Position numbers and translations under genes: made by a program
The notes under the pieces: generated by a model
Databases searched by the model: none
What the model saw: the letters and a program-made list of their open reading frames with translations, nothing else
Told to the model about the DNA's origin: nothing
Part shown: one piece after another, positions 15,737 through 24,450 of the stretch
Layout of the letters: each line of letters starts with the position of its first letter
Position numbering within the stretch: the stretch's first letter is position 1
IMG/VR virus record: IMGVR_UViG_3300047562_001311
Coordinates: 1 to 24,450 of that record
Source: a virus
Direction: 5' to 3' (one strand)
Length of the DNA stretch: 24,450 nucleotides

Positions 15737-16191
15737 GATTCACCAACCCCGACACCGACGAACTGAGCGAGATGGCGAGTCTGTTGCGCGCCACCGACCG
15801 CCGCGAGGCGCGAGCCAGCCATGGACTGGGGGCTAGGGAGGCGGTGTTACAGAGCTGGCACGCCAGCACTGTGCGCCTTGGCATCGAGGGTGACGACGGC
15901 CGGCTGGTGGGCTGCTGCGGTGTTTGCCCTGACGCCGGGGCTGGGGAGATCTGGATGCTTGGCACCGACGGGCTGCTGGCCACTAAGAGCCACCGCATCC
16001 AGCTGGTGCGCCGCGGCCGGCAGTGGGTCGACTCACTGCTGCGCGACTGGCGGCTGCTGCACAACTACGTGTTTGCGGCCAACACGCAGTCGGTGGCTTG
16101 GCTGCGGTTCATGGGCTTCACGGTTTATGAGGCTGAGCCGCATGGGCCCTACGCCCAGCTGTTCCGGTATTTCTTCAGGGAGGCGGACTGA
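15733..16191 (+). CDS. gp13-like internal virion/assembly protein with GNAT-like fold (152 aa)
   Basis: It sits exactly where T7 has gene 13. The sequence resembles the DUF2833 phage family, which is related to GNAT acetyltransferases: a strand VRLGIEGDDGRLVGCCGV, then EIWMLGTDGLLATKSHRIQLVRRGRQWVDSLL, then the GNAT-style ending LHNYVFAANTQSVAWLRFMGFTVYE. The R/QxxGxG/A acetyl-CoA loop of active GNATs is not visible, so it may be a structural or assembly protein without activity. The start is ATG 15733, overlapping the nozzle stop (ATGA), although the frame is open further upstream. The stop overlaps the next ATG (TGATG). Confidence 0.75.
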   Translation: MRFTNPDTDELSEMASLLRATDRREARASHGLGAREAVLQSWHASTVRLGIEGDDGRLVGCCGVCPDAGAGEIWMLGTDGLLATKSHRIQLVRRGRQWVDSLLRDWRLLHNYVFAANTQSVAWLRFMGFTVYEAEPHGPYAQLFRYFFREAD

Positions 16192-17075
16192 TGGCATTTG
16201 GAGTTGACGACGCCATCGCCCTAGGACTTGGCTTCGGCCAAATGGGCATGAGCATCTTTGGCGCTTCTGCCCAGAACGCCTCAGCCAAGCAGCAATACAA
16301 GGACGCGCTGAAGTACCAAAAGGTCAGCGACAAGTACGCGCGGTGGTCTTCCAAGATCAACGCCCGCATCGCCAACACCCAGAGCAAGTACCGCTACTGG
16401 GCGGAGCTGGTCAACTACAACCAGAACCTCAGCTACGTCAATCAGCTGCGGAACTACGAGCTCACCAAGGCCTACGAACAGGCTGTGGTGGTGCGACGCA
16501 CGCGCACGTCGGCCATGTCCGACTTCGCGCTGCAGGCTCAGGCACTGAGCGAGGGCATCCGCGAGCAAGCGGCGCAGGATGCAGTTTCTGCATACCAGTA
16601 CGCCCACCAGGCCATGAAAGCCCAGGCCCAGGTGGTGGCCGCTGGGATGGAAGGCGCCAGTGTTGACCGGCTGGTGAATGACTACGACCGGCAGCTGGGC
16701 GACTTCCGCGCGCTGCAGCAGATCAATCAGAACTTCCGCGAGCGGCAGTACACGCGCGAGCAGGCAGGGCTCGTGGCCGGCTACCTGAGCAAATACAACA
16801 GCCAGCAGTTCTACAAGCCCCAGCCTTACCAAGACCCGGTGCGGCCGTTTGCGCCGCTGCCGACGCTGGTGATGCCGCAGCCGCCGTCGATGACCGGGGC
16901 TGGCCCCAGCCAGGCGGCCGCCAATCTCGGCATCGGCAACGCCGTGCTGAGCGGCATCAACACAGGCCTAAGCGTCTGGCAGGGCCTGCAGCAGTTCACC
17001 AGTAGTGGCAAGCCAGGGGGCGGCTCAGGTCTCCTCGGCTTTGACCTTGCCGCGCAGGGGATCAACTTGAACTAA
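16191..17075 (+). CDS. Internal virion protein B, T7 gp14-like (294 aa)
   Basis: In T7, gp14 is ejected first and forms the pore in the outer membrane. This protein opens with a hydrophobic, glycine-rich stretch (IALGLGFGQMGMSIFGASAQNAS) typical of gp14 homologues, followed by a long coiled helical region rich in Ala/Gln/Tyr/Arg (residues about 35-205), including AAGMEGASVDRLVNDYDRQ, where GxSGxSVxxL-type text is common in the family. The C-terminus is proline-rich and then Gly/Ser-rich. It is longer than T7 gp14 (196), as usual for cyanophage homologues. GGGAGG precedes the start, and the gene begins the gp14-15-16 block. Confidence 0.85.
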   Translation: MAFGVDDAIALGLGFGQMGMSIFGASAQNASAKQQYKDALKYQKVSDKYARWSSKINARIANTQSKYRYWAELVNYNQNLSYVNQLRNYELTKAYEQAVVVRRTRTSAMSDFALQAQALSEGIREQAAQDAVSAYQYAHQAMKAQAQVVAAGMEGASVDRLVNDYDRQLGDFRALQQINQNFRERQYTREQAGLVAGYLSKYNSQQFYKPQPYQDPVRPFAPLPTLVMPQPPSMTGAGPSQAAANLGIGNAVLSGINTGLSVWQGLQQFTSSGKPGGGSGLLGFDLAAQGINLN

Positions 17076-17079
17076 GGCC

Positions 17080-19827
17080 ATGGCACGCGAACAACTCCCA
17101 CTCGGACAGATCCAACCCGCCGCCCGGCCGGTTTCGAGCTTTGTGCAGCCAGGGCTGATTCAGGCGGCCAGGCCAGCGCAGCCACAAATGCTCCAGCTGA
17201 ACGGCGATCGCATTGGCCTGGTGCAGACCGCGGCCAAGCCGAATGTCGGCGGGTTCGATCAGGGCGAACAGCTGGCCAGGGCTCTGGCGCCATTCAGTCA
17301 GAACCTGACCAAACTGCTCAATTACGGCGCGCAGCTGTATGCGTCGAATGAATACCGGCAGGGCCAGAACGAAGCACTGAAGGCCTACAGCCAGGCCAAT
17401 AACCAGCTGATGGTTTCGGCCGACGAGTACGCCGCCGAGAACCGCGACCTTTACCGAAAGGATCCGCTGGCGGGACTGCTGATGGATCGGGCCAACCCGT
17501 TCCGCACGGCTGGCCGCCAGAACCAGCTCAGCCAGCTGGCGGCGCAAGAGATGCCGATGATCATGCGGCGCGAGTTCAACGCTCGCCGCGGCGATCTGGC
17601 TCTGCTCGACCCAGTCGATCCGCGGATCAATGCGGTGAAGGCCGCGGCAATCGCCCAGGTGACGCAGAAGTTTGGGCTCGACCAGTTCACGCCCGGCTTC
17701 ATGGATTACGTCCTGCCGCGAATGAATCGCGAGTGGGACAAGATCACCCAGGACCAGATCGACGACCACAACAAGTACCTCGATGACACGGTGCCACCGA
17801 TTGCGGCGGCCACCATCTACGGGCGAGTGACGCAGGCCATGAAAGCCCGCGTGCCTGAAAGCACGATCGTGGCCACCGAAAGCCTTTATCTCGACGAGCA
17901 AGCACGCAAGTTCAGCGAGCCAGGCAAAGGCCAGAAGATGAAGGAGGAGGCCATCAGGCGGGCCTATGCCATGGCGATCGACCCCAAGACGGGGGTGGTC
18001 GACAAGGAGCTCAGGGCGGTCTTGTCCAGGATTCTTGTTGGCCCACCTGACGCCAATGGCAACCGGGCCACAGCCGGGCAGATGTATGGGCTGGAGCTGC
18101 TTGAGCAGGCAGACAAATCCGACCAGCAGATCTACCGCGCTCGCAGGGCCGAACAGGAGGCCGTTGGCCAGCAGTACGCCGACGCAGTGGCTGAGGCGAC
18201 GATCGGCCTGCCGGACGGGCCCGAGAAGGCGCAGATCCTTGCGGAGATCCGAGGCCAATACGACAAAAAGCTGCCGCTGTCCGAGCGGCTGCGGATTGAG
18301 CAGAGCACCACCAACGTCACCGAGGCGATCACCGGCCGCGGCTTCCGCGATGACGCCGCCGAGCTGTTCCTCCAGACCGCTGAGGCCGCCTACGGCAAGG
18401 ACTGGGATCCGAAGTTCTACGACCAGCGGTTTAAGGACGCGCTCGATAGCGTCGACCCCGCCAAGCACGGCGAGTTCCGCGCTCGCTACATGGAGCTGCG
18501 TCGACGCAAGGAGACCCAGAAGGGCTCGATGCCTGAGGGAATCATCTCTGGCGCTATTGCCCGGCAGATCAAGGCCAACGTCGAGGCGATCTACCCCGAT
18601 CCCGTTACGGCAGCGATCCGCGGTGCGCGCAACATCGAGGAAATGATGGCCGTGGGTGACGCCAACGGGGCCGCTTCCGTTGCCAAGCAGCACGCTGCGT
18701 TCCGCCAGGCGATCTACACCGCAATCGACGCCAAGCGCGCCCAGTTGGACCGCGACCTGACGCCAGCCGAAATGCAGGAGGTGATCGACGGCACTCTCAC
18801 CGGGTTCGAGGAGAACGCCCCGCAGACCTGGAAGACGCTGTTCCCTGGCGCCAACGGCCAGCCCAGTGCGGTGCCCTTCGGGACCACGCGCCCGGCAGCG
18901 GAGCAGCAGGCGCCCAAGCCGCCGCCGGGCCGCCGGGCCCAGGCCGCTCCCACATTTCAGGTGGGCCAACTGGACACCATGCCCGACCGCGAGCAGCGGC
19001 TGCAGAACTACCGCGGTGAGGCGGTGCTGAGCGCCAGCGAAGTCGCCCGACTGATTCCGATGGCCCTCAACGGCCAGGGGATGCCGGCCCCGTTGTCCCG
19101 CGCGGCCAAGGCGGCGGGCACCAGTCCGCAGCAATTCCTGCTGCAGCAGGCCGAGTTCTACCCCGACGACATCAAGCTCACCCCAGCGCAGCGCGCGACG
19201 CTCGGCCGCGATGGCCAGCAGTCGCGGGCGACGCAGAGCTACTCGCAGCAGGTGGCGGCCAGCTACCAGGCATCCAGTTCGCCCCTGGCTGCCGCTGGTC
19301 GCTGGGTGATTGATGCGCTGACCGGCACGGCGCCTGCCTATGCAGGATCCATGCCTACAGCGGTGGCCACCGCCACAGGGCTGCCCACCGGGCGCAACAG
19401 CAAGCAGCAGGCCATCACCAGGGCTGCACAACAGCTGGGGATTAACCCGTTGGACCTGGCGGCCGTGATGTCACTGGAGACCGGCGGCACTTTCAACCCT
19501 GACATCCAAGGTGGCGATGGCGGCCGCTACCGCGGGCTGATCCAGTTCGGCCCCACCGAGCAGCGCACTTATGGGTGGAAGCCCGGAATGGGGTTCGAAG
19601 CCCAGGTGCTCGGCCCGGTGGTCCGCTACCTCAAGGCCCGCGGAGTCAAACCTGGCCACACGGCCCAGGAGATCTACGCCGCAATCCTCACCGGCAACGT
19701 CTCCAACATTCAGCGCGGCGGGCTGGATTGGAGGGACTCCAACGGCACGTCGGTGAGAAGGGCGCTACCGAGCCTCACCAGCGGCGCCCATCGCCAAAAC
19801 GCTCTTCGCTTCCTTCGGGGGAACTAA
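17080..19827 (+). CDS. Internal virion protein C, gp15-like, with C-terminal lytic transglycosylase domain (915 aa)
   Basis: Residues 1-640 are helical and gp15-like, a core and ejection-channel component. A proline-rich linker follows near 610-630. From about residue 775 to the end the text reads as a lysozyme/SLT-type domain: AAQQLGINPLDLAAVMSLETGG with E800 in the place of the catalytic glutamate, then YRGLIQFGPTEQRTYGW (GLxQF/GLMQ-type motif), and LGPVVRYLKARGVKPG. Such a domain would open peptidoglycan during DNA entry. In T7 this activity is at the N-terminus of gp16 instead. Length is 915 against 747 for T7 gp15, and the extra length roughly equals an SLT domain. The start ATG is 4 bases after the gp14 stop. 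Confidence 0.85.
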   Translation: MAREQLPLGQIQPAARPVSSFVQPGLIQAARPAQPQMLQLNGDRIGLVQTAAKPNVGGFDQGEQLARALAPFSQNLTKLLNYGAQLYASNEYRQGQNEALKAYSQANNQLMVSADEYAAENRDLYRKDPLAGLLMDRANPFRTAGRQNQLSQLAAQEMPMIMRREFNARRGDLALLDPVDPRINAVKAAAIAQVTQKFGLDQFTPGFMDYVLPRMNREWDKITQDQIDDHNKYLDDTVPPIAAATIYGRVTQAMKARVPESTIVATESLYLDEQARKFSEPGKGQKMKEEAIRRAYAMAIDPKTGVVDKELRAVLSRILVGPPDANGNRATAGQMYGLELLEQADKSDQQIYRARRAEQEAVGQQYADAVAEATIGLPDGPEKAQILAEIRGQYDKKLPLSERLRIEQSTTNVTEAITGRGFRDDAAELFLQTAEAAYGKDWDPKFYDQRFKDALDSVDPAKHGEFRARYMELRRRKETQKGSMPEGIISGAIARQIKANVEAIYPDPVTAAIRGARNIEEMMAVGDANGAASVAKQHAAFRQAIYTAIDAKRAQLDRDLTPAEMQEVIDGTLTGFEENAPQTWKTLFPGANGQPSAVPFGTTRPAAEQQAPKPPPGRRAQAAPTFQVGQLDTMPDREQRLQNYRGEAVLSASEVARLIPMALNGQGMPAPLSRAAKAAGTSPQQFLLQQAEFYPDDIKLTPAQRATLGRDGQQSRATQSYSQQVAASYQASSSPLAAAGRWVIDALTGTAPAYAGSMPTAVATATGLPTGRNSKQQAITRAAQQLGINPLDLAAVMSLETGGTFNPDIQGGDGGRYRGLIQFGPTEQRTYGWKPGMGFEAQVLGPVVRYLKARGVKPGHTAQEIYAAILTGNVSNIQRGGLDWRDSNGTSVRRALPSLTSGAHRQNALRFLRGN

Positions 19828-19830
19828 GCA

Positions 19831-22800
19831 ATGCCCATCGAGTACGTCACCGATCCCCGCACCGGGAAAGTTGTCTCCAAGGGAGCGCTGGGCTTCGGCC
19901 AGCCCGTTGCACCTGAGCGCCCCCCTGCGCCCAGGGCCAAACCCAAGCCAAAAGCCAAGCCGACGCGCAAGCCGGCGGCCGCTCAAATCCTCGGATTTGG
20001 CCCCGGCGGCTTTTCGCTCAGCAAGCTCGGCAACGACCTGCGTTACGAGCTCAACCGAGTCAAAAGCAATCCGGTTGGGTCCGCAGTTCTTTACAGCAAA
20101 AACCTGAACAAGCCTCGAGATGCCGCAGGCGCTGGGTTGGCGGCCGTCTACACAAGCGGGGCGAAGGAATTTGCCAAGGGCGTCACAACCGCAAGCACTA
20201 ATGCCGTCCGAGCAGTAATCGAGGAGGGCCAGAAAGCCGGCGGCCGCGGCCAGGCCGACTACACGACTTCTCCTGGAGGGCGTGCGGTCGATTCGTTTGA
20301 GGACACGGTATTTCGGCTGACGGGCGACATCCCCCCGTCCCAGATGTCACAGGAGCAAAAAGATTTTCGCGACACCCGCGGATCTCTCACGCTCGGCGTC
20401 ATGGGCGCCTTTGGCGTTACGCAGGGCCTGGCAGCACTGAGTGGGCTTCGCTTCGTTGGGCCCATGGCTCAGGCTTGGGCCAATGGCATGAACGTCTCCA
20501 AGGCCAGCACCTGGTGGGGCGCGCTGGGCCGATTAGGGGCAGACGCGACTGTTGGAGAGCTGGTCACCACCTTCCTCGACGACAACACGCCGGGTAGCGC
20601 TTTTCGGCTGTTTGGCGAGCAGGCTGATCCGGTGAAGCCGGGGATGGACCGACCCACGGCGGCTCGAGCGGCGTTTTTCCCCAACCTGGCCGCGGGCGCA
20701 ACCTTGAGCCTGCCCTTTGCCGCCCCAGAAATCTTCAGGGCGATCGGCCGCTCCCGGGCTGGGCGCCGCGTTGTGCAGCAGGCAGCGGTACAGCCGCGAG
20801 CAGAGCTTGAAACCGCCGGCCTGACGCAGGCTGACCCCGAGACGGGCGCTGCTGCGTTTACGGAAGAGGCCATTACCGGCACCAGCCTCCGCGAGGCCAA
20901 CGCCGCCCTGGAGGAGAAGTACGGGATCAAGACGCCGGAGCCCGCTGCTGAGCCGGCTGCCACGCCTACGCCCGAGATCCCCAGCCAGGCGATGGAGCCC
21001 GGCGGCGCCGTGACCGCAGGCGAGCTGCCGACCGCCGACCCCGGCCTGGATCCATGGGCCATCGACTACGACCCCGAGCTGCCCGAGGCCGATGTGGCGC
21101 TGAGCCAGATCAAGAACGCCTCCGACGCCGAGTTGCTGGATGCCGTTCGCAGCGGCGGCCCGGTGCTGAACACGCTCGACGAGCAGATGGCCATGCGCCA
21201 ACCGCTCGAGCCTGATCCGGCGCTGAGCATCGACCTCAACGCTGCGCCAACCGATCGCCTGGCAACGCCGATCACGCCCTTTGCGCAGCAGTGGCAGCGC
21301 ATCGGCCAGAAAGATCCGCAGCAGTTGCTCAATGTCCTTAATCCAGAGGTGAACCCCGCCCTGGCCGATCGTGCCCAGGCGATGTTTGGCAAGCAGTGGG
21401 AGGAGCTCACCCCCGCCGACGCGGTTGACACCCTGCAGGCCGCGGCCAACGAAGGCGTCACGGTCATCCCGAACCGGCTGCTACCCGGCCAGCAGATCGT
21501 CAGCACCGGCGACCTGAAGGTCGACCCTGAGCGCTTCCAGTACAAGGGCGGCACTGACGCCAGAGGCGTGCAGCGCGGCTCCTCCCTCGAGGGCGTCGAC
21601 CGCTGGAACACCGACATGGAGGGCGTGGTCGAGGTGTGGCAAGACCCGGCCGATGGCAACTACTACGTGGTCAACGGCCACAACCGTTTCGCCAAGGCCA
21701 AGGAGCTCGGCATCCCCACCCTGGCGGTCAAGGAGCTGATCGCCGAATCGCCGGAGCAGGCCAAGACTGCAGGCGCGCTGAGCAACATCGCTAGCGGTGG
21801 CGGCCGCCCGATTGACGCGGCCTGGTTCATGAAGGGCGCCGGCGTCACCGACCCCGCCCAACTCGAGGCGATGGGCGTGCCCCTGTCACCGGATTCGGGC
21901 CACGGTCTCTCGGGCTTCCAGCTCAGCCAGCTGCCGGACGACATCCTGCGCGCTGTGGAGAGCGGCCAGATCAAGGAGCGCATGGGCCGGATCATCGGTG
22001 GCAGCGGCGCCAGCGAGGAGTCGATGCGCGGCGCCTATCGCTACCTGCTCGAGAACCAAGGCGTCACCGAAGGCCGCCTGCGGAACATGCTCGAGATGAG
22101 CCGCCAAATGACCGGCGAGGCCCAGGCCGGCGGCGGGGGCGACCAGATCGACCTGCTGAAGGGCACCCCCTGGGATCAGACCTTCAACAAGCAGATGATC
22201 GCCGTGGCCGACCTGGCCGATGAGGTGGGATCGCTGCTGAAGCGCGAGAAGCGGCTGTTCACCATGGCGGACGCCAACAGCGCAGCGCTGGAGGCCAAGG
22301 GCAGCCGGATCGACAAGGCCAGCGCCCAGGCCGTGGCCGACGCCAACGCCCGTGCGATCGACTTCTTCCAGCGCACCTGGATGGAGACCGGCCCGATCCG
22401 CGACCTGCTCAACGAGGGCGGCAACCGCGTCGCAGCCGGCGAGAACAAGGGCGCGATCGCCAAGCAGATCAAGAACCGCCTGGTGGGGCAGCTCGCCGAT
22501 CTGATGGGCGAACAGGCCGTCACCCGAGCTGATGTGGTCCAGGAGGATCTGCTGGCCGGAGGCGGCGGACAGTTCCTCCCAGACTCCCAGGCCCTCCTTG
22601 GCGAGATCGACCGAGCCGCGGCTGCCTACGGCGAGTCGATCGACAAGGGGCTTGAAATGTCCCGCCAGCTTGGCGATGCGGCTGCTGGGCTGGAGGCAGG
22701 TGCGCGCGAGCTCGGCGACCAAGCCTCGGTCATCAAGGAGCTTTCCGACGCGCCGTTGGATCGACTGGACCCCATCGACCGGGAAGCGATGGAGTTCTTC

Positions 22801-24411
22801 GCCATCCAGCGCGCCATCCAGAACGGTGAGGTGCGCCCGCCCGAGACGCCGATCCCAGAACTGCCGATGGATTCAGGCGTTGACCTGATGAAGGTGCAGC
22901 GCGATCTGGCCGAGAACACCATCACCGACGATGTGGTGAAGGCCATGGCGGACGAGCTGGACCTCCGCGACGCCTACCGCCAGCTGGATGAAACGATCGC
23001 CCGCGAGGCCGAAAAGGCCGCGCGCGACGCCGAGGGCTACGACCTCAAGACCTTCGACGAGAAGAAGGTCGCGGGGGCGTTGGAAGGCTTCCAGGATGCG
23101 CCGGCTCAGCCCAAGGCAGAGATCAAACTGATCCCCTACGCCGACAAGGCCAGGGAAGCGGCTCGCCTTGGTGAATTCAACCGTGGCAAGGGTCGCTGGG
23201 GAATCACTGAGCAGCAATGGCGGGCAACCTTTGATCGTCTTGGGGGTGTTCCTGACTGGATCGCCTTTGCTGGCGGGACGGAGAATTGGGAGCGCTTGCT
23301 ACAGGGCTACGAGAACCCTGGATTCGAGGCCAAAATCAAGGCGCTAGTGCAAGGGAGCGCGCCATCTGGCGCCCAGTCCAGGTCGGCCGAGATTCCTGCT
23401 CCGCCCGCTGCGTTCACCTTCCCGGCAGACCTCTCGAAGTCGGCGCCCCGCTACGGCATGGCGAAGGTCGAGTTCGCGTCTGACCTGGACCGTGCGGCCT
23501 ACATGCTGCGCGACGAAGCCAAGAAGTCGAAGGGCGAATCACGCCTGATCCAGGCCCTGGAGGAGGCCGGCTACAACATCACTGCGATCCGCACGCACGG
23601 TGCCAAGGTGCGCGATGCGATCAAGGGCATCGTCACGGAGCAGACCGGCTCAGCCGCTGCACCGCAGAAGGCGATGAGCCTGCAGGTGCCCGAGCAGGCA
23701 TTCCGGGGAGCGATGCCCCCACGTCAGTTAGCCGACCAACTGCTCGCTCCCGGCACCGAGCTCAGTCACGGCACAAGCAGCAAGGCGGCAAAGCTAATCG
23801 CCGCCAGCGGGTTCCGCCCTTCGCGTGCAGCCTCCGGCGGCGCGATTCTGGGCGATGGCGTTTACTTTGCGCCCGACCCTACATACGCCGGCGTCTACGG
23901 GGACACGGCCCTATTTGGCCCCGTCCCAAGCAGCGCCAAAATCCTGGATCTCTACGGCCAGCAGAAGTCGACCGCTGACTTCGCCGAGGAGATCGGCGTT
24001 GGCAGGCCAGCCGACCTGTTTGACGGGGAGTATTTCTACACGACCGAACAGCAGGCAGCCATCCGCCAGTGGGCCCTGGACAACGGCTACGACGGCATCC
24101 ACTTCAATCCTGCCGATGAGTGGCTCGATGGTCGGGCCCTTGGCGCTGCTGAGGTCGTGATCTACAAGCCGGAAGTTGCCGACGCCATCGTCGGCGCCAA
24201 CGTCGTCGGCGAGCTTGGCCGGCTGATTGGCGACATCGACGCCAAAACAGGCCTGCCAAAGGGCCTGAGCAGGAAGGCCATCAAAGAGTTGTCCGCCGGC
24301 AACCCGGATCGCGCCATCAAGGAAGTGACCGCGATGAGCGACGCACGCATCGCGGCGCTGCGCTCCGAAATCGACTCCATCAAACAACGCGCTGCCGAGG
24401 AGGGCTGCTGA
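19831..24411 (+). CDS. Giant internal virion protein D, gp16-like, with ParB-like and ADP-ribosyltransferase domains (1526 aa)
   Basis: By position and size this is the gp16-type ejection protein (T7 1318). Parts: a Pro/Lys-rich N-terminus (about 25-50); hydrophobic segments near 187-210 and 280-302 that could sit in the membrane channel; a Pro/Ala linker (365-400); a ParB/sulfiredoxin-like region about 550-735 with VVNGHNRFAKAKELG (N615-G-H617-N-R619) and a ParB-like LPDDILRAVESGQIKERM stretch near 701; long helical regions; a conserved-looking module FASDLDRAAYMLRDEAKKSK; and a C-terminal ADP-ribosyltransferase-like domain about 1305-1450. The last has LSHGTSS (H1313), GDGVYFAPDP (Y1345) and GAAEVVIY (E1441), an H-Y-E type triad. 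No SLT motif is seen at its N-terminus. It may therefore be a multi-domain protein injected with the genome. Domain calls are by eye. Confidence 0.85.
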   Translation: MPIEYVTDPRTGKVVSKGALGFGQPVAPERPPAPRAKPKPKAKPTRKPAAAQILGFGPGGFSLSKLGNDLRYELNRVKSNPVGSAVLYSKNLNKPRDAAGAGLAAVYTSGAKEFAKGVTTASTNAVRAVIEEGQKAGGRGQADYTTSPGGRAVDSFEDTVFRLTGDIPPSQMSQEQKDFRDTRGSLTLGVMGAFGVTQGLAALSGLRFVGPMAQAWANGMNVSKASTWWGALGRLGADATVGELVTTFLDDNTPGSAFRLFGEQADPVKPGMDRPTAARAAFFPNLAAGATLSLPFAAPEIFRAIGRSRAGRRVVQQAAVQPRAELETAGLTQADPETGAAAFTEEAITGTSLREANAALEEKYGIKTPEPAAEPAATPTPEIPSQAMEPGGAVTAGELPTADPGLDPWAIDYDPELPEADVALSQIKNASDAELLDAVRSGGPVLNTLDEQMAMRQPLEPDPALSIDLNAAPTDRLATPITPFAQQWQRIGQKDPQQLLNVLNPEVNPALADRAQAMFGKQWEELTPADAVDTLQAAANEGVTVIPNRLLPGQQIVSTGDLKVDPERFQYKGGTDARGVQRGSSLEGVDRWNTDMEGVVEVWQDPADGNYYVVNGHNRFAKAKELGIPTLAVKELIAESPEQAKTAGALSNIASGGGRPIDAAWFMKGAGVTDPAQLEAMGVPLSPDSGHGLSGFQLSQLPDDILRAVESGQIKERMGRIIGGSGASEESMRGAYRYLLENQGVTEGRLRNMLEMSRQMTGEAQAGGGGDQIDLLKGTPWDQTFNKQMIAVADLADEVGSLLKREKRLFTMADANSAALEAKGSRIDKASAQAVADANARAIDFFQRTWMETGPIRDLLNEGGNRVAAGENKGAIAKQIKNRLVGQLADLMGEQAVTRADVVQEDLLAGGGGQFLPDSQALLGEIDRAAAAYGESIDKGLEMSRQLGDAAAGLEAGARELGDQASVIKELSDAPLDRLDPIDREAMEFFAIQRAIQNGEVRPPETPIPELPMDSGVDLMKVQRDLAENTITDDVVKAMADELDLRDAYRQLDETIAREAEKAARDAEGYDLKTFDEKKVAGALEGFQDAPAQPKAEIKLIPYADKAREAARLGEFNRGKGRWGITEQQWRATFDRLGGVPDWIAFAGGTENWERLLQGYENPGFEAKIKALVQGSAPSGAQSRSAEIPAPPAAFTFPADLSKSAPRYGMAKVEFASDLDRAAYMLRDEAKKSKGESRLIQALEEAGYNITAIRTHGAKVRDAIKGIVTEQTGSAAAPQKAMSLQVPEQAFRGAMPPRQLADQLLAPGTELSHGTSSKAAKLIAASGFRPSRAASGGAILGDGVYFAPDPTYAGVYGDTALFGPVPSSAKILDLYGQQKSTADFAEEIGVGRPADLFDGEYFYTTEQQAAIRQWALDNGYDGIHFNPADEWLDGRALGAAEVVIYKPEVADAIVGANVVGELGRLIGDIDAKTGLPKGLSRKAIKELSAGNPDRAIKEVTAMSDARIAALRSEIDSIKQRAAEEGC

Positions 24412-24413
24412 TC

Positions 24414-24450
24414 ATGTCCAACTGCGAAGACGCCTTTCAAGAGATCCAGC
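24414..24450 (+). CDS. Start of the next gene (partial)
   Basis: The ATG at 24414 lies two bases after the gp16-like stop, with a very strong GAGGAGGG (24397-24404) nine bases ahead. Only 12 codons are visible (MSNCEDAFQEIQ). A tail fibre or tail-associated gene usually follows gp16 in T7-like phages, but the fragment is too short to tell. Confidence 0.6.
   Translation, partial: MSNCEDAFQEIQ

What the first reader, a model, noticed from the sequence alone, without database searches (positions are those of the whole stretch)
19831..24411. Ejection protein carrying a ParB-like domain and an ADP-ribosyltransferase domain: a candidate injected effector
The gp16-like protein has, near its C-terminus, LSHGT (H1313), GDGVYF (Y1345) and AAEVVIY (E1441). 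This is the order and spacing of an H-Y-E ADP-ribosyltransferase. It also has a ParB-like region with VVNGHNR at 613-619. T7 gp16 is ejected into the cell with the DNA. T4 Alt shows that a packaged ADP-ribosyltransferase can enter with the genome and modify host RNA polymerase. Multi-domain 'polyvalent' phage proteins that combine ParB-like and ART domains are known as a class. Linking one to the T7-type ejection channel would give this phage a way to modify host targets before any phage gene is expressed.
Basis: partly seen in the sequence, partly recalled or inferred. Interest (0 to 1): 0.85.

Follow-up and report, generated by a model that had tools for sequence, protein, structure and literature searches.

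The report
ADP-ribosyltransferase cassette in phage ejection protein
A short-tailed phage, probably of freshwater cyanobacteria, carries in one of its large DNA-ejection proteins both a DNA-binding ParB-type domain and a domain that looks like an active ADP-ribosyltransferase, and near-identical phages have exchanged just that enzyme for a protease-like one, which suggests an interchangeable effector injected with the DNA.

Summary
The 1526-aa ORF at 19831-24411 contains H1313, Y1345 and E1441 in an ART/PARP-type domain (residues ~1296-1462). Pfam PARP scores E=4e-5 on the domain alone. Profile matches to PARP10 reach 2e-6. An AlphaFold2 model (pLDDT 81) finds PARP2, PARP4 and an anti-CRISPR structure, with H, Y and E in strands 1, 2 and 5. 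VVNGHNR (613-619) lies in a ParB N-domain plus helix-turn-helix fold (pLDDT 78; ParB/Noc/KorB, E down to 1e-5).

The ORF lies in the ejection-protein block of an Autographiviridae phage. It is not a T7 gp16 homologue: the transglycosylase is in the preceding gene, and homology to the C-terminus of cyanophage internal virion proteins is in the next gene. In relatives the ParB and ART modules are fused to that C-terminal part. Cultured cyanophages P60 and S-CBP42 carry a related ART inside their annotated internal virion protein; Syn5 lacks it at that site.

New here: relatives with 66-75% identical proteins replace the ART by an HExxH zincin-like domain between flanks up to 96% identical in DNA. 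The class (polyvalent proteins, T4 Alt) is known; this looks like a new variant with an exchangeable effector slot. Virion presence, catalysis and target are untested.

The parts
19831..24411 (+). ORF P0001, 1526 aa, large ejection (internal virion) protein candidate with polyvalent domain set
   Evidence: single open frame; relatives of 66-75% identity in the same gene order; positional and domain links to internal virion proteins
16191..17075 (+). gp14-type internal virion protein
   Evidence: Pfam T7_gp14 E=1.1e-7, above gathering score
17080..19827 (+). gp15-position protein, 915 aa; C-terminal lytic-transglycosylase-like domain at about residues 779-835
   Evidence: PDB 9udh lytic transglycosidase E=2e-4 on the C-terminal 185 aa, PHROG hits
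21451..22110 (+). ParB-type domain plus helix-turn-helix, about residues 541-760; VVNGHNR at 21667-21687
   Evidence: AF2 model pLDDT 78; Foldseek ParB/Noc/KorB E to 1.3e-5, prob 1.00; profile vs PDB ParB E=0.03
22753..23100 (+). segment conserved across the ejection-protein family, about residues 975-1090, present even in S-SRP02, which lacks ParB and ART
   Evidence: blastp
23389..23712 (+). short conserved domain of unknown fold directly before the exchangeable slot, residues 1187-1294
   Evidence: 89-95% aa identity to L004/L006/L009/L011 and recognisable in distant members
23716..24216 (+). ADP-ribosyltransferase-type domain, about residues 1296-1462; H1313 at 23767, Y1345 at 23863, E1441 at 24151
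23698..24379 (+). exchanged cassette: no DNA similarity to L004 here, with 96% DNA identity before it (23397-23697) and after it (24380-24450)
   Evidence: blastn; L004 carries an HExxH domain in this place
24399..24404 (+). GGAGGG ribosome-binding site of the next gene, embedded in the last codons; explains the conserved C-terminal EGC
24414..24450 (+). start of the next ORF (cut by window end); in relatives ~1130 aa, homologous to the C-terminal part of cyanophage internal virion proteins

Best explanation
P0001 is one of the large ejection-core proteins of a short-tailed Autographiviridae phage, probably of freshwater cyanobacteria. It is built from exchangeable modules: an N-terminal part with two hydrophobic stretches, a ParB-type DNA-binding domain with HTH, a helical region, a short conserved domain, and a C-terminal enzyme slot holding an ART. 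Most likely it is packed in the capsid core and leaves with the DNA. The ParB part would then grip or load onto the entering DNA, and the C-terminal ART would ADP-ribosylate a host macromolecule before phage genes are transcribed. Shown by computation: the ART and ParB folds, conserved Y and E, the H in this phage, gene context, fusion of the same modules to internal-virion-protein parts in relatives, and cassette exchange. Inferred: packaging, entry into the cytoplasm, catalysis, and a host target (for example RNA polymerase as for T4 Alt, or a defence complex).
For: ART. ParB. Ejection context: T7_gp14 two genes upstream and a transglycosylase-like domain in the adjacent gene; the downstream gene family matches the C-terminus of the Syn5/P60/S-CBP42 internal virion proteins (hhalign prob 97%, E=1.7e-11, six controls negative); in single-chain relatives (2400-2850 aa) ParB and ART precede a C-terminal part that also matches them (prob 93%, E=2.8e-7). 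A related ART lies inside the internal virion proteins of P60 (E=7.5e-23) and S-CBP42 (6e-26) with H, Y and E kept, and is absent at the same site in Syn5. Module mobility: the window protein and L020 share 62.6% identity in the ART but 30% in the backbone; ART replaced by an HExxH domain in L004 between 96% identical flanks. Purifying selection on the ART, dN/dS 0.05-0.29 in seven gap-free pairs.
Against: No virion proteomics or biochemistry for any member was found in the papers I could search. Foldseek TM-scores for the ART are modest (0.4-0.5) and the best PDB E-value is 1.1e-3. No atomic coordinates were available to measure H-Y-E distances. The P-SCSP1-like group has K in place of H, so not all members need be active in the same way. 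T7 gp16 itself shows no detectable homology. Myoviruses, not podoviruses, are the usual ART carriers (30% against 3%, PMC9503650).
Confidence: 0.72

Rival explanations
1. The ART fold is real and the protein is a virion component, but the domain acts on phage parts (self-modification, assembly or DNA packaging) and not on the host.
For: No target is known. The domain sits in a structural protein and relatives do without it, so its role could be local. An HExxH domain in the same slot could be an assembly peptidase, as proposed for polyvalent proteins (PMC5512222).
Against: Relatives with 66-75% identical proteins assemble with an unrelated domain in the slot, and Syn5 and S-SRP02 have no ART. 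Exchange of unrelated enzyme types fits a variable outside target better than a fixed assembly step.
Confidence: 0.13
2. The domain is a degenerate or purely structural ART-like module without catalysis.
For: Seven of 15 aligned domains have K instead of H at the first catalytic position.
Against: The window's domain, the L020-L031 and L034 domains and the P60/S-CBP42 domains keep H, Y and E; Y and E are invariant in all 15 aligned; dN/dS is well below 1.
Confidence: 0.1
3. P0001 is not packaged; it is a late non-virion protein that happens to lie among the ejection genes.
For: No proteomics for this lineage was found.
Against: Fusion of the same modules to internal-virion-protein C-termini and to full internal virion proteins in cultured cyanophages, and conserved position between gp14/gp15-type genes and the next core-protein gene.
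Confidence: 0.05

Closest known systems
Polyvalent proteins of phages and conjugative elements (Iyer et al. 2017, PMC5512222)
   Same: Large multidomain proteins near late genes that combine ParB/Srx, ART and zincin-like domains, predicted to enter with DNA.
   Different: The text passages I read name N4-type vRNAP, P1 DdrB and MuF/portal fusions; 'gp16' and 'Autographi-' do not occur in the main text. The ParB here is not recognised as ddrB-ParB by Pfam and has the ParB/Noc HTH part.
Internal virion proteins of cyanophages P60 (gp34) and S-CBP42 (phrog_6651)
   Same: Carry a related ART with H, Y and E in an internal virion protein of a T7-like phage.
   Different: ART sits at residues ~345-550 of an unsplit protein without ParB; the deposited annotation mentions no ART.
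MPP-C cyanophage P-SCSP1 large protein (2563 aa)
   Same: Same order ParB, then ART, in one chain, next to the tail genes.
   Different: Fused with the C-terminal part; ART has K in place of H; the authors report that the candidate internal virion protein genes of this clade could not be functionally annotated (PMC9860041).
T4 Alt
   Same: Packaged ART that enters with the genome (PMC5512222).
   Different: Single-purpose myovirus head protein; not an ejection-channel protein; no ParB part.
T7 gp16
   Same: Position in the gene order; role of the C-terminal part in cytoplasmic DNA binding (PMC8954989) is comparable with a ParB-HTH module.
   Different: gp16 has an SLT domain (Pfam 1.7e-31) and belongs to phrog_342; P0001 has neither.

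Membership tests
H-Y-E ADP-ribosyltransferase (PARP/diphtheria type) | H, Y, E residues on strands 1, 2 and 5 of the ART fold | tested here: met
   H18, Y50, E146 of the modelled domain lie in or at strands E15-20, E48-52, E146-149
H-Y-E ADP-ribosyltransferase (PARP/diphtheria type) | Fold similarity to known ARTs | tested here: met
   Foldseek top hits PARP2, PARP4, PARP1, tankyrase 2 and diphtheria-type proteins, prob 0.9-1.0, E from 1.1e-3, TM 0.4-0.5; viral PARP/PolyVal-ART E to 4e-7
H-Y-E ADP-ribosyltransferase (PARP/diphtheria type) | NAD+-dependent transfer activity | not testable with these tools
   needs purified protein
ART-PolyVal (PF18760) | score above the curated cut-off | tested here: inconclusive
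   16.3 bits against 31.2 for the window domain; 8 of 15 homologues match, best 6.7e-5
ParB/Srx superfamily with HTH | ParB N-domain plus HTH fold and GxxR motif | tested here: met
   Foldseek ParB/Noc/KorB E 1e-5 to 6e-4; GHxR invariant in 18 sequences
DdrB-like ParB (polyvalent) | match to the Pfam ddrB-ParB model | tested here: not met
   no such hit at E<=1 in 18 members
T7 gp16 | SLT transglycosylase domain and phrog_342 match | tested here: not met
   absent in P0001; present in T7 gp16; hhalign E=0.2
Polyvalent protein | two or more unrelated effector-type domains in one chain among late genes | tested here: met
   ParB-HTH plus ART next to portal, capsid, tail and gp14 genes
Polyvalent protein | packaged and injected | not testable with these tools
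   needs virion proteomics and delivery assays

The most novel reading that the evidence does not exclude
T7-type ejection cores carry a true exchangeable effector slot: the channel proteins deliver a cassette (ART, HExxH peptidase-like, or none) into the host, swapped by recombination between near-identical phages, while the ParB-type module clamps the entering DNA and may serve as the DNA ratchet that T7 gp16 is thought to provide.
Probability: 0.3. Interest if true: 0.8.

Novelty: new variant of a known kind. Interest (0 to 1): 0.62.

Why it matters
It offers a concrete candidate for pre-transcription takeover in T7-like phages: an enzyme built into the DNA-ejection machinery. Related ARTs sit in cultured, tractable cyanophages (P60, S-CBP42, P-SCSP1), so packaging, activity and target can be tested directly. 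The exchange of ART for an HExxH domain between near-identical flanks suggests that ejection proteins evolve like delivery platforms with interchangeable payloads.

Tried and rejected
A C-terminal [E/G]GC tail shared by most family members irrespective of the enzyme looked like a sorting signal; it is the GGAGG ribosome-binding site of the next gene written into the last codons, in two reading frames. A joint alignment of the pre-slot domain, ART and tail (A3) was misaligned and discarded. T7 gp14, gp15 and gp16 as single sequences gave no hhalign signal. The HExxH domain has H-E-x-x-H and a downstream E invariant in 15 sequences, but neither Pfam nor PDB sequence search named it, so 'zincin' stays a motif-level call. 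A scan of bacterial and archaeal genomes for the ART found no relative, so its origin stays open. PADLOC gave nothing. An 'Lsr2 DNA-binding' Pfam hit inside the ART (E=6.5e-4, 16 residues) is below cut-off and was taken as chance similarity of one helix. Two phage-collection rows were left out of the structure jobs because the tool does not take them. The dN/dS value for L022/L023 was ignored because of an uncorrected indel.

Full report
Where it is. The window (24,450 bases, 64% GC, its own virus record) holds the structural block of an Autographiviridae phage: RNA polymerase, portal-type connector, scaffold, capsid, tail tube, nozzle, gp14, a 915-aa protein and then P0001. The nearest cultured relative by nozzle protein is the freshwater Synechococcus phage S-SRP02, 66.9% identical over 99%, with the same gene order. 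The cyanobacterial host is inferred from this.

All residues and coordinates are correct. Three short motifs alone would be weak evidence, so I relied on profiles and folds. The domain alone matches Pfam PARP at E=4e-5, below the curated cut-off; among 15 homologues 9 match PARP and 8 match ART-PolyVal. The family profile finds PARP10 at 2.3e-6 with H and Y in register. The AlphaFold2 model (pLDDT 81, pTM 0.81) finds PARP2, PARP4, PARP1, tankyrase 2, an anti-CRISPR protein (6kyf; from memory AcrIF11, itself an ADP-ribosyltransferase) and diphtheria-type proteins in the PDB, and PARP and PolyVal ARTs among viral models, E to 4e-7. H, Y and E fall on strands 1, 2 and 5. Y and E are invariant in 15 sequences; H is K in the seven sequences of the P-SCSP1-like group. 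The ART is under purifying selection in seven gap-free pairs (dN/dS 0.05-0.29).

The ParB part. VVNGHNR is the conserved centre of a region found in at least 273 IMG/VR stretches. The model (pLDDT 78) matches ParB, Noc and KorB across the N-domain and the HTH, and the alignment to Caulobacter ParB covers both. It is not recognised as DdrB-like ParB by Pfam.

Is it a gp16? Not by homology to T7. T7 gp16 has an SLT domain and belongs to phrog_342; P0001 has neither. The transglycosylase-like domain is in the upstream ORF (9udh, E=2e-4). The downstream gene family matches the C-terminal ~620 columns of the internal virion proteins of Syn5, P60 and S-CBP42 (hhalign prob 97%, E=1.7e-11) with six negative controls. 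In 2400-2850-aa single-chain relatives, ParB and ART precede a C-terminal part that matches the same region (prob 93%, E=2.8e-7). So P0001 and the next gene look like a split version of one large ejection protein. Published work places gp16-C in the cytoplasm with DNA-binding activity (PMC8954989), where a ParB-HTH module and an ART would make sense.

Independent occurrence. A related ART with H, Y and E lies inside the annotated internal virion proteins of cultured cyanophages P60 (E=7.5e-23) and S-CBP42 (6e-26). Both are phrog_6651 members, like Syn5 gp45, which has no ART at this place. L031 shows the same insertion.

The slot. The closest fetched relatives, with 66-75% identical proteins, lack the ART (L001-L009 and L011). 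In L004 the DNA is 96% identical up to window position 23697, unrelated from 23698 to 24379 and 96% identical again to the window end; the replaced stretch encodes an HExxH domain. Across 15 such domains H-E-x-x-H and a later E are invariant, as in gluzincin-type metallopeptidases, but no library names it. The window's ART is 62.6% identical to that of L020, whose backbone is only 30% identical. The cassette therefore moves between backbones. Among the 80 loci nearest by the ParB part, only one carries the ART, whereas at least 27 carry the HExxH domain at E below 1e-20 (not deduplicated, some cut by contig ends). S-SRP02 has neither ParB nor ART nor HExxH domain at this position.

Mechanism. 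Best reading: an ejection-core protein that carries an injected enzyme. The ART then modifies a host macromolecule early, as T4 Alt does. Packaging, delivery, catalysis and target are inference.

What is known. Polyvalent proteins with ParB, ART and zincin domains were described in 2017 (PMC5512222), with ART on an N4-type podovirus vRNAP. A 2022 survey found ARTs in only 3% of podoviruses (PMC9503650). Neither paper mentions Autographiviridae by the terms I searched, and 'gp16' does not occur in the 2017 text. The MPP-C paper says that the P-SCSP1 candidate internal virion genes cannot be functionally annotated (PMC9860041); the present comparison gives the 2563-aa P-SCSP1 protein ParB and ART parts. 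I therefore rate it a new variant of a known kind.

Noticed in passing
window 24399-24416: The ribosome-binding site GGAGGG of the next gene is embedded in the last codons of P0001, giving a conserved C-terminal EGC or GGC in most relatives, in two reading frames.
   Followed up: yes
L004 9700-10500; L005, L006, L011, L012, L016: An HExxH domain with an invariant later E fills the slot occupied by the ART; it is not named by Pfam or PDB sequence searches and may be a new zincin-like family.
   Followed up: partly
window 17080-19827 against L138 7904-10810: The adjacent gp15-position protein has a transglycosylase-like C-terminus here; the S-SRP02 counterpart is annotated as amidase and similarity is confined to the N-terminal ~250 residues, so its enzyme part seems exchanged too.
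   Followed up: partly
L135 2551-7470 and L132 3635-8467: Cultured cyanophages P60 and S-CBP42 carry an unannotated ART in their internal virion protein; SS120-1 has a different insert at the same place.
   Followed up: partly
L015, L032, L033, L035, L042, L046, L051: ART domains of the P-SCSP1-like group have K in place of the first catalytic H while keeping Y and E.
   Followed up: no
window 17062-19431 (-): A 789-codon antisense open frame lies opposite the gp15-position gene; probably a shadow of GC-rich coding sequence.
   Followed up: no
window 23389-23712: A short conserved domain of unknown fold sits directly before the exchangeable slot and recurs in distant family members, including P-SCSP2.
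   Followed up: no
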